20,128 bases of DNA from a virus. Below the pieces are notes generated by a model. That model worked only from the letters and a program-made list of their open reading frames with translations. It did no database searches and was not told where the DNA came from. The DNA lies in the IMG/VR virus record IMGVR_UViG_3300042922_000484, positions 1-20,128 of that record. One strand, given 5' to 3'. This document shows, piece by piece, positions 331 to 18,700 of the stretch (its first letter is position 1; every line of letters begins with the position of its first letter). A program made the position numbers and the translations under genes.

Positions 331-366
331 AAAAAATATGATATCACCATTTCTGGCAATACCCTA
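331..366 (-). terminator. terminator after the SHOCT gene
   Basis: Minus-strand hairpin with a GAAA loop; stem arms at 340-349 and 354-363 include some G-U pairs, followed by a T-run (331-336). It is a near copy of the terminator at 1309-1342, sharing the core GCCAGAAATGG. It closes the single-gene SHOCT transcription unit. Confidence 0.7.
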
Positions 367-378
367 AAATAATATATG

Positions 379-1308: not shown

Positions 1309-1342
1309 AAAAAAAGGGTATCACCATTTCTGGCAACACCCT
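1309..1342 (-). terminator. terminator after the tape measure gene
   Basis: Minus-strand hairpin: AGGGTGTTGCCA, loop GAAA, TGGTGATACCCT, followed by a T-run. It ends the structural operon just after the tape measure stop codon and is repeated in slightly decayed form at 331-366. Confidence 0.85.
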
Positions 1343-1379
1343 AAAAATTTTCACTACTACATATGTTATTTTTTTATTT

Positions 1380-16242: not shown

Positions 16243-16563
16243 TTACTTATTTAACCAACCAAGTAACAGTAAAATAATTGACACGGCTATTGGTAATCAT
16301 ATACCAATTTTTCACTGCCAACTAGCATTGCTTTGTTTGTTACCATCGATTAAATAACTATCAAATTTATCCGCTCATTTATTAATAGTTTCTGTTAGTT
16401 TATCCATACTCTTATTTAGATTTTTAACAGTAGTCTCCTGGCAAGCCGCATCTATCTTTATATCGCCAATATCGTCTGTATTTTTTGTGATTCTTTTATC
16501 GTGATCATCTAATCTCTTATCATGATTTTCTAATTTTTCCAATATAACATCTTCTTGCTGCAT
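16243..16563 (-). CDS. XhlA-like lysis/hemolysin protein, three UGA-Trp codons
   Basis: 106 residues from ATG 16563 (AGGTG 6 nt upstream). The N-terminal half is a coiled coil with repeats DKRLDDHDKRI and NLNKSMDKLTETINK; the C-terminus is one membrane helix (LPIAVSIILLLLGW) with a short charged tail. This layout is that of the XhlA (haemolysin) family, which works with holin and endolysin in cell lysis. TGA codons at 16375-16377, 16312-16314 and 16297-16299 (residues 63, 84 and 89) are read as Trp, and TGG Trp residues stand nearby. Without recoding, the membrane anchor would be lost. It lies upstream of TerS, away from the usual place after the tail genes, with no holin or endolysin beside it. 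Confidence 0.8.
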
Positions 16564-16587
16564 AATAAGCACCTACCTTTCTATTTT

Positions 16588-16890
16588 GTAAAATCCCCAG
16601 GTCATGGGATTTCCTTTTACTGACTTTATCCTAGTCGGTTGAAACGTCCACGGATTCTATAATCTCAAATAATTTGCTCCTTAATAACTATTCGCCACAA
16701 CGTAGAATACCATAATACTATTACGGGATTTAAAGGATATTATGTTTTGCAATACCTTTATTAAAATATTCTTACCATTAAGATTTAAAACGGAGGACTT
16801 TAAACGACCTGTTTTGAAACGTGTTATTTTACCAATCCCTTGCAAGAGTAGTCGCCAGCCTTGGCGATTTCCCTAGTCTGGGAATTTTAC
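16588..16890 (-). ncRNA. candidate large structured RNA, about 303 nt
   Basis: The ends of this gene-free stretch are complementary: minus-strand GTAAAATTCCCAG (16878-16890) pairs with CTGGGGATTTTAC (16588-16600) over 13 bp with one G-U pair. Inside, local hairpins are visible: TTCCC/GGGAA (16869-16884), TCGCCA/TGGCGA (16852-16867), GACT/AGTC near the 3' end, and AAATCCC/GGGATTT (16591-16612). The first and last compete with the closing stem, so two alternative folds are possible. The stretch is less AT-rich than its neighbours and has stops in all minus frames. It begins at the stop codon of the GIY-YIG gene, which suggests a homing intron or intron-like partner. I could not find the paired group I P7 core or a group II domain V, so the class is unknown. 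Confidence 0.5.
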
Positions 16891-17549
16891 CATCTAAATA
16901 GCGTTTCTTCCTTCAAAGGAATTATTATAATTTTCTTTAAAAGTTGATCTGCAAAATCTTCTTGATTATCGTCCTTAACATTACTAATATCTTTATTTAT
17001 AATATAATATCCGTATTCATCAACAAATAATTGCCTTTGAGATAGATTATATTGTAACTTTGGTAAATCATTATATAATCTATATGTATTCATATTATAT
17101 AGGTGTACAAATACATAATCATCATTTTTTATATGTATACCTATAGGTCAATGTAAGGCTGCTTTTTTACCCTTGCATCTATCATCTATATAGTCTATCT
17201 CAAAATCAATTATGTCATCTGATTTATCCAATTTATCACATATATATCAAACTATATCATCTTTTGTAGAAGGTGTATTATAAAGTTGATATCCAAGCCT
17301 TCTATATTTATCTATCTCAAATAACTCCAAATATTTAGCATCCTTATTACTGGAACATTCATCAATGCCCTCAAACTTAAAATTATCTGGTCCATATTCA
17401 TCTCAATCTATCTGTAAATCTTTATTTATATGTTTACCATTATTTAATTCACGTATATGAGATTCTCACCGATGCTTAATATCTAAACTTCTTCCTATGT
17501 ATACCTTATTTGTATCCTTTAAATTTGTAATCTTATAAATACCTATCAT
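16887..17549 (-). CDS. GIY-YIG nuclease, four UGA-Trp codons
   Basis: 220 residues with TGA at 17466-17468, 17403-17405, 17247-17249 and 17148-17150 (residues 28, 49, 101 and 134) read as Trp; only the last Trp (residue 220) is TGG. The N-terminal GIY-YIG domain is clear: MIGIYKITNLKDTNKVYIGR, then SLDIKHRWESHIRELNNGKH, with the catalytic Arg and the H/W spacing of the family, and a Glu-containing third motif around KFEGIDEC. The C-terminal half is unrelated and acidic, probably for DNA recognition. Such enzymes are homing endonucleases of phage introns or free-standing. A GGGGAG ribosome site is rather far (about 12 nt) from the ATG. It ends inside the closing stem of the structured RNA. Confidence 0.88.
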
Positions 17550-17587: not shown

Positions 17588-17860
17588 TTATATACTTATT
17601 CTACGTATTGTTTCCATAGAAAAGTCAATAATATAGGCGTAACCTGTTGAAGTATAAAAAGTTACATAAGATTCTATAATATCGACATACATTTTTTCTA
17701 CTGTATCTAAATCTAGTGTAATCTTATCATTTCTAGATTTAGCAGTATAAATTACTCCATATTTCATTTTTAAATTAGTACACTGACACTCATCCATCAA
17801 CTCTCTAACAAATTTTTCTTCTTTTCCTGGTTCATAATAATAATCGTCCATTGTTTCCAT
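17588..17860 (-). CDS. small acidic unknown protein
   Basis: 90 residues from ATG 17860, with GGAGG 10 nt upstream; an ATG at 17869 sits directly on GGAGGA and is too close to be used. It starts METMDDYYYEPGKEEKFVRE, is acidic and ends with a beta-rich segment (YVTFYTSTGYAYIIDFSMET). Two cysteines in ECQCTN are the only ones. No family recognised. Small acidic phage proteins of this size can be inhibitors of host enzymes, but nothing here shows that. Confidence 0.65.
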   Translation of the reverse strand: METMDDYYYEPGKEEKFVRELMDECQCTNLKMKYGVIYTAKSRNDKITLDLDTVEKMYVDIIESYVTFYTSTGYAYIIDFSMETIRRISI

Positions 17861-17913
17861 GTAATACATTCCTCCATTTATTTTTTATTTAAGTTTATTG
17901 CTTATGTGTATCA

Positions 17914-17976
17914 TTGGGGGAACTCTCTTATTTTGCTTCGTACCTCGCAAAAATAATAGAGATAGCATTCCCCCAA
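17914..17976. repeat. two-tier hairpin 6
   Basis: Outer arms TTGGGGGAA (17914-17922) and TTCCCCCAA (17968-17976). An inner imperfect stem pairs TCTCTTATTTTGC with GCAAAAATAATAGAGA around a 10-nt loop. The gene-free stretch 17861-18262 holds this hairpin, hairpins 5 and 4 and a short open remnant. Confidence 0.75.
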
Positions 17977-18017
17977 ACCCCCTTGCGTGGTTATTTTTTT
18001 ATTATCAAAATAAAAAC

Positions 18018-18091
18018 GTTCCATCTTTCAAAACCACTAATATAAGAAAATCCTGAATATATTTTTTATTAGATGGTTTGAAAGATGGAAC
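18018..18091. repeat. large hairpin 5, bidirectional terminator-like
   Basis: Perfect 15-bp outer arms GTTCCATCTTTCAAA (18018-18032) and TTTGAAAGATGGAAC (18077-18091), continued by an imperfect inner stem (CCACTAATA with TATTAGATGG). T-runs follow on both strands, so it could end transcription in either direction. Confidence 0.8.
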
Positions 18092-18112
18092 TATTTTTTA
18101 CCCTAATAGATT

Positions 18113-18214
18113 TCCTATGTAGTTTGCTTGTAAATTACATATTAGATTAATTATTTTTGTGCAATAGTCTATATAATTTTTATAGATTTTCTTAATGTGA
18201 TAAAATACATTTTA
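18113..18214 (-). pseudogene. open remnant between hairpins 4 and 5
   Basis: Between hairpins 4 and 5 a minus frame without a start codon is open for about 35 codons (FYHIKKIYKNYIDYC, then IINLICNLQANYIGNLL) up to a TAA. The composition looks protein-like. It may be the tail of the HNH-like gene cut off by hairpins 3 and 4, but the frame cannot be joined directly and I cannot prove it. Confidence 0.25.
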
Positions 18215-18272
18215 CTTAATATAATATAAATATGTGAGCTGTTTTTGCGAACAATATTTATATTATATTAAG
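18215..18272. repeat. large hairpin 4
   Basis: Perfect 19-bp arms CTTAATATAATATAAATAT (18215-18233) and its complement (18254-18272) around a 20-nt loop. It abuts hairpin 3 at 18272/18273 and contains the stop codon of the HNH-like frame. Confidence 0.85.
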
Positions 18273-18448
18273 GGGTACTGATTTTTAGATGGCGGGTTTT
18301 GCCAGCTAATAAATCGGTGCCCAATACTACTATTACTATGATGTACTTCTAAATTTTCTGTACTACCACAAATTTTACATGAATCTTTTTTAATTAATAA
18401 AATAACCTTATTATTAACTATTGTTCTTAAATATTGACTTAATTTCAT
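18263..18448 (-). pseudogene. HNH-type nuclease fragment
   Basis: 61 residues from ATG 18448 with GAGGTG just upstream. CKICGSTENLEVHHSNSS is the start of an HNH/zinc-binding nuclease motif (C..C, then HH). The family normally continues for dozens of residues to an Asn/His and a second CxxC or CH element, missing here. After VHHSNSS the frame runs into hairpin 3 and stops inside hairpin 4. It looks like an HNH gene cut by the hairpin elements; a genuine short zinc-binding protein is the alternative. Confidence 0.5.
18273..18322. repeat. two-tier hairpin 3
   Basis: Imperfect stem from GGG (18273-18275) to CCC (18320-18322) including GATTT/AAATC, with an inner TGGC/GCCA stem (18290-18304) around a 7-nt loop. 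It lies inside the end of the HNH-like frame. Confidence 0.65.
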
Positions 18449-18475
18449 ATTGCACCTCATTTCTAAAGTGAATAT

Positions 18476-18540
18476 AAAAGGTAGGCGTTTTTGTGGAGTA
18501 TCCCTAATTTAGGGAGTATCCACATTTTCGCCTACCTTTT
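18476..18540. repeat. three-tier hairpin 1
   Basis: 12-bp outer arms AAAAGGTAGGCG (18476-18487) and CGCCTACCTTTT (18529-18540). Two inner stems follow, GTGGA/TCCAC and CCCTAA/TTAGGG, separated by symmetric internal loops. It lies between the small frame at 18509-18700 and the HNH-like gene, so it could terminate the former. Confidence 0.85.
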
Positions 18541-18700
18541 TAGAAAGTTCATAAATCATCCAATATCTATTATTGTTACTTAAAACTTCATTTGTTACCA
18601 AATTAGGCGTCATCCTATAATTAGGGATGACGCTCAATTCGGTAACATAGTTATTAAAACCATATAACAAAATTATTATTCCATACCTATTATTTTGCAA
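18509..18700 (-). CDS. doubtful small frame carrying two hairpins
   Basis: 63 codons overlapping the 3' end of the helicase gene by 25 bp in another frame, with no convincing ribosome site. It encodes a hydrophobic start (GIIILLYGFNNYV), runs through hairpin 2 in frame and stops inside hairpin 1. Leaving out hairpin 2 gives the smooth joint FNNYVTNEVLSNNNRYW, with V-T duplicated at both edges, as if the hairpin had been inserted in a coding stretch. Low confidence as an expressed gene. Confidence 0.3.
   Translation of the reverse strand: MQNNRYGIIILLYGFNNYVTELSVIPNYRMTPNLVTNEVLSNNNRYWMIYELSKKVGENVDTP
18593..18647. repeat. two-tier hairpin 2
   Basis: Outer arms GTTACC (18594-18599) and GGTAAC (18641-18646), AATT/AATT, then a 9-bp inner stem GCGTCATCC/GGATGACGC (18607-18615 and 18625-18633) around a 9-nt loop. 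The ends resemble terminal inverted repeats and the element keeps the reading frame open. Confidence 0.85.

What the first reader, a model, noticed from the sequence alone, without database searches (positions are those of the whole stretch)
16588..16890. Unclassified 303-nt structured RNA adjoining a GIY-YIG gene
The gene-free stretch has a 13-bp closing stem joining its two ends plus several internal hairpins, and two of these compete with the closing stem. It starts at the stop codon of a homing-type nuclease. I could not match it to group I (no GACTA/TAGTC P7 pair), group II, tmRNA or other phage RNAs known to me. It may be a new or very divergent mobile ribozyme or phage large RNA.
Basis: partly seen in the sequence, partly recalled or inferred. 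Interest (0 to 1): 0.68.

Follow-up and report, generated by a model that had tools for sequence, protein, structure and literature searches.

The report
Conserved noncoding patch in a phage
Between two genes of a bacterial virus lies a 300-base stretch that codes for no protein, keeps several short blocks almost unchanged in the one related virus found, is very unlikely to be a self-splicing intron, and is probably a modest, still unclassified control RNA.

Summary
The gap is real and noncoding, but probably not a mobile ribozyme. The window is a fragment of a phage that reads TGA as Trp, all genes on the - strand; the gap lies between a GIY-YIG gene and an XhlA-like gene. The only homologue found is one related phage, IMGVR_UViG_2551306534_000001 (G001). 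Five blocks are 90-100% identical there (clustering beats 5000/5000 column shuffles), separated by frame-breaking indels. The 13-bp closing stem exists in the window (0.3% of shuffles reach it) but shrinks to 6 bp in G001, while the two hairpins competing with it survive. Folding energy is no better than the phage's background; two-sequence covariation is suggestive, not significant. G001's copy has no GUC, so it cannot form a group I P7, and both flanking ORFs are intact. Rfam is silent, but it also missed an annotated phage intron used as a control, so that silence is weak evidence. Most likely this is a structured intercistronic leader: CCUUU can pair with an upstream AAGGG or with the Shine-Dalgarno AAAGG of the next gene, suggesting translational control. 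A trans-acting RNA or a DNA-level site remain open, and the transcribed strand is not proven.

The parts
16887..17549 (-). GIY-YIG homing-type endonuclease gene (220 aa, four in-frame TGA read as Trp)
   Evidence: (PF01541 E=1.9e-9)
16576..16891 (-). noncoding stretch with conserved blocks; gene-sense strand assumed, not shown
   Evidence: no shared frame with G001
16869..16884 (-). hairpin UUCCC-AGACUA-GGGAA, identical in both phages; competes with the closing stem
16836..16841 (-). AAGGGA (AAGGGG in G001), 5' arm of a helix with 16732-16737; possible anti-anti-SD
   Evidence: one A-U to G-C double change
16732..16737 (-). UCCUUU (CCCUUU in G001), 3' arm of that helix; its CCUUU can instead pair with the SD at 16576-16580
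16750..16787 (-). possible hairpin in the variable region, three double changes; alignment uncertain there
16710..16726 (-). hairpin CCRUAA-YAGUA-UUAUGG (alternative partner of CCRUAA: 16695-16701)
16689..16709 (-). hairpin UAUUC...GAAUA whose loop holds GUUR (16698-16701)
16630..16653 (-). hairpin CC-g-UGG-a-CG UUUYAAC CG-a-CUA-GG; loop YAAC (16638-16641) complementary to GUUR with one G-C to A-U double change
16595..16608 (-). hairpin CCC...GGG (CCCC...GGGG in G001) before the ribosome-binding site; competes with the closing stem
16576..16580 (-). Shine-Dalgarno AAAGG of the XhlA-like gene, identical in G001
16243..16572 (-). XhlA-like small membrane protein (109 aa, three in-frame TGA read as Trp)
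   Evidence: (XhlA E=1.4e-4, below the curated cut-off)

Best explanation
The stretch is a structured, noncoding, intercistronic leader in a polycistronic phage mRNA, between the GIY-YIG gene and the XhlA-like gene and upstream of the packaging and structural genes. I think it most likely controls translation of the XhlA-like gene. CCUUU (16732-16736) acts as an anti-Shine-Dalgarno: pairing with AAAGG (16576-16580) closes the start site, pairing with the upstream AAGGG (16837-16841) leaves it open. Two conserved hairpins with complementary loops (GUUR/YAAC) would be the sensing or protein-binding part. Shown: noncoding, conserved blocks, the listed helices possible in both phages. Inferred: the strand, that it is transcribed, the switch and the target gene.
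For: Conserved blocks between frame-breaking indels, clustered beyond 5000 of 5000 shuffles. The ribosome-binding site of the next gene is identical and adjoins the element. CCUUU pairs with the SD in the minimum-energy fold of the isolated 3' domain of both sequences; in full-length G001 the pairing probability is 0.39-0.47. The competing helix AAGGGA/UCCUUU carries a compensatory double change. All genes run the same way with no strong promoter or terminator in between on that strand, so it is probably cotranscribed.
Against: Only two sequences. Covarying helices are not more frequent than in shuffled alignments. In the full-length window sequence the SD is mostly unpaired, probability 0.89-0.96. 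Single-sequence folding is better on the antisense strand. CCUUU is short and will pair with any AAAGG.
Confidence: 0.35

Rival explanations
1. It encodes an independent, trans-acting structured phage RNA, possibly read from the + strand, comparable in kind to skipping-rope, ROOL or GOLLD RNAs; its complementary loops would kiss within or between molecules.
For: Consensus fold better than column shuffles on both strands (sense z -2.3, 3/150; antisense z -2.5, 1/150); antisense single-sequence z -2.6 and -3.9; a loop-loop pairing with one double change. G001 also carries a skipping-rope RNA, and relatives carry another conserved RNA between terminase genes, so this phage group does use such RNAs.
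Against: No promoter above chance and no clear terminator of its own on the gene-sense strand; no Rfam match; stability within the phage's background.
Confidence: 0.25
2. It is a DNA-level element (operator array, replication or packaging site, recombination ends); the hairpin-like blocks are inverted repeats read by proteins.
For: The conserved blocks contain short inverted repeats, and CTTGCAAG is a perfect DNA palindrome (sequence); neither strand clearly wins in folding.
Against: Two conserved helices contain G-U pairs in both phages (16839/16734, 16649/16633), which are mismatches in DNA palindromes.
Confidence: 0.2
3. It is a relic: the decayed 3' tail or insertion scar of a mobile element next to the nuclease gene, with blocks shared only by recent common descent.
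For: The genes are only 5-14% diverged, so some identity is expected; only two copies are known.
Against: Identity is strongly clustered, and intergenic DNA nearby (about 17906-18190) has diverged beyond detection.
Confidence: 0.15
4. It is the 3' part of a very divergent self-splicing intron or mobile ribozyme that carries the nuclease gene.
For: It lies directly downstream of a GIY-YIG gene; GACUA occurs twice; Rfam missed an annotated phage intron used as a control.
Against: No GUC anywhere in G001's copy, so no P7; no group II domain V seen by eye; both flanking genes complete, and only 38 nt lie between the upstream gene and the nuclease gene.
Confidence: 0.05

Closest known systems
Translational leaders and riboswitch-like elements that hide the Shine-Dalgarno
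   Same: Noncoding stretch ending in a ribosome-binding site; an anti-SD with an alternative upstream partner
   Different: No known aptamer or Rfam family; switch deduced from two sequences only
Phage structured RNAs: skipping-rope (RF02924), ROOL, GOLLD
   Same: Phage-encoded noncoding RNA with possible kissing loops; ROOL and GOLLD are of unknown function and use kissing loops (PMC12286853); skipping-rope occurs in G001
   Different: No sequence or covariance-model match; ROOL and GOLLD are larger and usually lie near tRNA islands (PMC12286853), and no tRNA is found here
Group I introns with GIY-YIG ORFs (phage SEP9 nrd intron as control)
   Same: Adjacent GIY-YIG ORF
   Different: No P7 partner and no interrupted gene; the SEP9 intron shows AACGACTATCC ... 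GATATAGTCTG

Membership tests
Group I intron | P7 (GAC...GUC pairing around the guanosine site) | tested here: not met
   G001's copy has no GUC at all; the window has three GUC but no UAGUC
Group I intron | Covariance-model match (RF00028) | tested here: inconclusive
   No hit at E<=10, but the positive control, the annotated SEP9 intron, was missed too
Group I intron | Interrupts a gene whose exons join | tested here: not met
   Flanking ORFs 17588-17869 and 16243-16572 are complete in both phages, and an in-frame TAG precedes the XhlA-like start
Group II intron | Domain V and reverse-transcriptase ORF | tested here: not met
   No Rfam intron hit; the ORF is GIY-YIG, not a reverse transcriptase; domain V checked by eye only
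tRNA / tmRNA | Cloverleaf or tRNA-like domain | tested here: not met
   ARAGORN finds none; lowered thresholds give only noise
skipping-rope, ROOL, GOLLD and other Rfam RNAs | Score above the family's gathering cut-off | tested here: not met
   0 matches in the window
SD-sequestering leader | SD pairs with a conserved anti-SD in homologues | tested here: inconclusive
   Present in the isolated 3' domain of both, and in full-length G001 with P about 0.4-0.5; absent in the full-length window ensemble
SD-sequestering leader | Changes expression of the downstream gene | not testable with these tools
   Needs a reporter assay

The most novel reading that the evidence does not exclude
A new class of phage structured RNA, absent from Rfam, in which two hairpins kiss through GUUR/YAAC loops and a three-way competition AAGGG / CCUUU / AAAGG gates translation of the XhlA-like gene ahead of the packaging genes.
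Probability: 0.18. Interest if true: 0.5.

Novelty: new member of a known kind. Interest (0 to 1): 0.28.

Why it matters
If it is a regulatory leader, it would show how a phage that reads TGA as Trp times its next gene block, and it would add an RNA family. As it stands it is a conserved but thinly sampled noncoding element. The structured elements seen nearby and in relatives (noted in passing) may be the more rewarding leads.

Tried and rejected
Rfam at E<=10 on both homologues: chance-level hits only (a Spot_42-like score, E=0.04, on the antisense strand of G001; a RAGATH-25 fragment). Group I and II anatomy by hand: rejected. tRNA idea (loop UUUCAAC looks like a UCA anticodon, which would suit TGA decoding): rejected, because there is no cloverleaf and G001 has UUUUAAC (UUA). 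DNA patterns in viral and genome contigs: only G001 is a true match; the others are chance. Covariance model R1 on 61 loci and 46 genomes of one bacterial family: nothing more. Model R2 was built with its pairs one column off and was not used. Pattern in 83 genomes of one class and P0001 in 398 genomes of the phylum: none. Helicase scan: only G001. Profile of the TerS-TerL RNA of relatives against the window: no match up to E=10. A first folding-background run timed out. My own estimate of covariation from hand-picked helices looked good, but an unbiased count did not support it.

Full report
Setting. The window is itself a 20,128-base virus record. Its genes run on the - strand and are readable only if TGA means Trp: 24 genes hold 16 in-frame TGA codons. 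The two in the large terminase fall where aligned relatives mostly have Trp (46 of 55 rows at residue 133, 59 of 59 at 312). Terminase relatives at 70% identity or less read through without TGA, with a single exception. The gap in question lies between a GIY-YIG nuclease gene (17549..16887) and a gene for a small XhlA-like membrane protein (16572..16243).

Homologues. One relative has the same arrangement: IMGVR_UViG_2551306534_000001, called G001 here (nuclease 88-90% identical). Five DNA patterns in viral contigs, one in genome contigs and a covariance model over 61 loci and one bacterial family gave no third copy.

Observation. Between the two phages the stretch is 68.6% identical, but the identity is bunched. 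Identical runs of 28, 16, 15, 12 and 11 nt are separated by poorly alignable spacers whose indels are mostly not multiples of three; none of 5000 column shuffles is as clustered. That makes it noncoding and constrained. The two hairpins that compete with it, 16869-16884 and 16595-16608, are kept in both. Thermodynamic stability is not special: z -1.6 and -1.1 for the two sequences, within the window's own background.

Structure. Helices that both sequences can form are listed under parts. Two of them change on both sides and stay paired: A-U to G-C at 16836/16737, and G-C to A-U at 16698/16641, which joins the loops of two hairpins. A third, in the variable region, has three such changes. I chose these after searching. 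In an unbiased count against class-preserving column shuffles the number of covarying helices is ordinary (77/200 shuffles reach it for helices of 4 bp or more, 21/200 for 6 bp or more). The consensus-fold test is mildly positive on both strands (sense z -2.3, 3/150; antisense z -2.5, 1/150), and single-sequence folding favours the antisense strand (z -2.6 and -3.9 against -1.9 and -1.4). The strand is therefore inferred from gene direction. G-U pairs at 16839/16734 and 16649/16633, present in both phages, speak for the gene-sense strand.

What it is not. Group I is excluded in practice because G001's copy contains no GUC to make P7, and no gene is interrupted. The lack of an Rfam hit counts for little on this point: as a control I scanned the annotated GIY-YIG intron in the ribonucleotide reductase gene of Staphylococcus phage SEP9, and Rfam missed it too, although its GACTA/TAGTC pair is visible. 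No tRNA or tmRNA is present.

Most likely mechanism. The 3' part ends in the ribosome-binding site of the XhlA-like gene, identical in both phages. CCUUU at 16732-16736 can pair with that AAAGG or with an upstream AAGGG. The SD-closing helix is in the minimum-energy fold of the isolated 3' domain of both sequences and has probability 0.39-0.47 in full-length G001; in the full-length window sequence the closing stem wins and the SD is free. This is the pattern of a translational switch, but it rests on two sequences and on folding calculations. I put it at 0.35, a trans-acting RNA at 0.25, a DNA-level site at 0.2, a relic at 0.15 and an intron or ribozyme at 0.05.

Verdict. A real, conserved, unclassified noncoding element; the intron or mobile-ribozyme reading is not supported. 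The function is a hypothesis that more homologues, strand-specific RNA-seq and a reporter assay would settle.

Noticed in passing
window 18194-18329 (+) and L004:4387-4528 (+): A 136-nt element, 84% identical between the phages, that is inverted relative to all flanking genes. Two tandem long hairpins with paired changes; the better-folding strand (-50 and -51 kcal/mol against -36 and -31 for its complement) is the + strand in the window and the gene-sense strand in G001. It looks like a mobile or invertible structured RNA; no Rfam match.
   Followed up: partly
window 18263-18460 (-): A short HNH-type ORF runs into the inverted element and seems cut by it (phrog HNH hit E=1.5e-4); the stretch 18330-18688 has no counterpart in G001.
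   Followed up: partly
L069:8951-9229, L024:335-603, L023:3230-3496, L026:8499-8778, L028:2278-2534 (partial L027:4287-4428): Relatives that use the standard code carry a conserved ~270-nt noncoding RNA shortly upstream of the large terminase gene (after a terminase-small-like gene in L069), with a 12-pair helix joining its ends and six pairs with compensatory changes. No Rfam match at gathering thresholds in the loci scanned. Possibly a new phage RNA family.
   Followed up: partly
L004:8318-8402 (G001): A skipping-rope RNA (RF02924, 64.6 bits, E=5.6e-13) lies between small genes upstream of the terminase genes in G001; none scores in the window.
   Followed up: no
whole window; G001: TGA is read as Trp in this phage and G001, while near relatives do not use it. 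No suppressor or Trp tRNA was found in either record, so the source of TGA decoding is open.
   Followed up: partly
window 332-369 and 1309-1346 (-): Two copies, 89% alike, of a terminator-like hairpin with a UGCCAGAAAUGG core on the gene strand; the region near 1251 has folding z -6.8.
   Followed up: no
window 17915-18100: A long GGGGGAA...TTCCCCC hairpin before the 93-aa gene and a 34-nt inverted repeat at 18012-18097; the 18001-18200 window has the strongest folding of the record (z about -7.5 on both strands).
   Followed up: no
L019:5755-8193 (-), G001: An 812-aa protein of unknown function (phrog_8308, E=1e-215) with an SGQDCDSDN motif that, from memory only, recalls single-chain YonO-type RNA polymerases; no Pfam or PDB sequence match.
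   Followed up: partly
L077 (NC_023582.1 66845-70132): The annotated intron of phage SEP9 is missed by Rfam even at E<=10, so a missing Rfam hit does not exclude a phage group I intron.
   Followed up: yes
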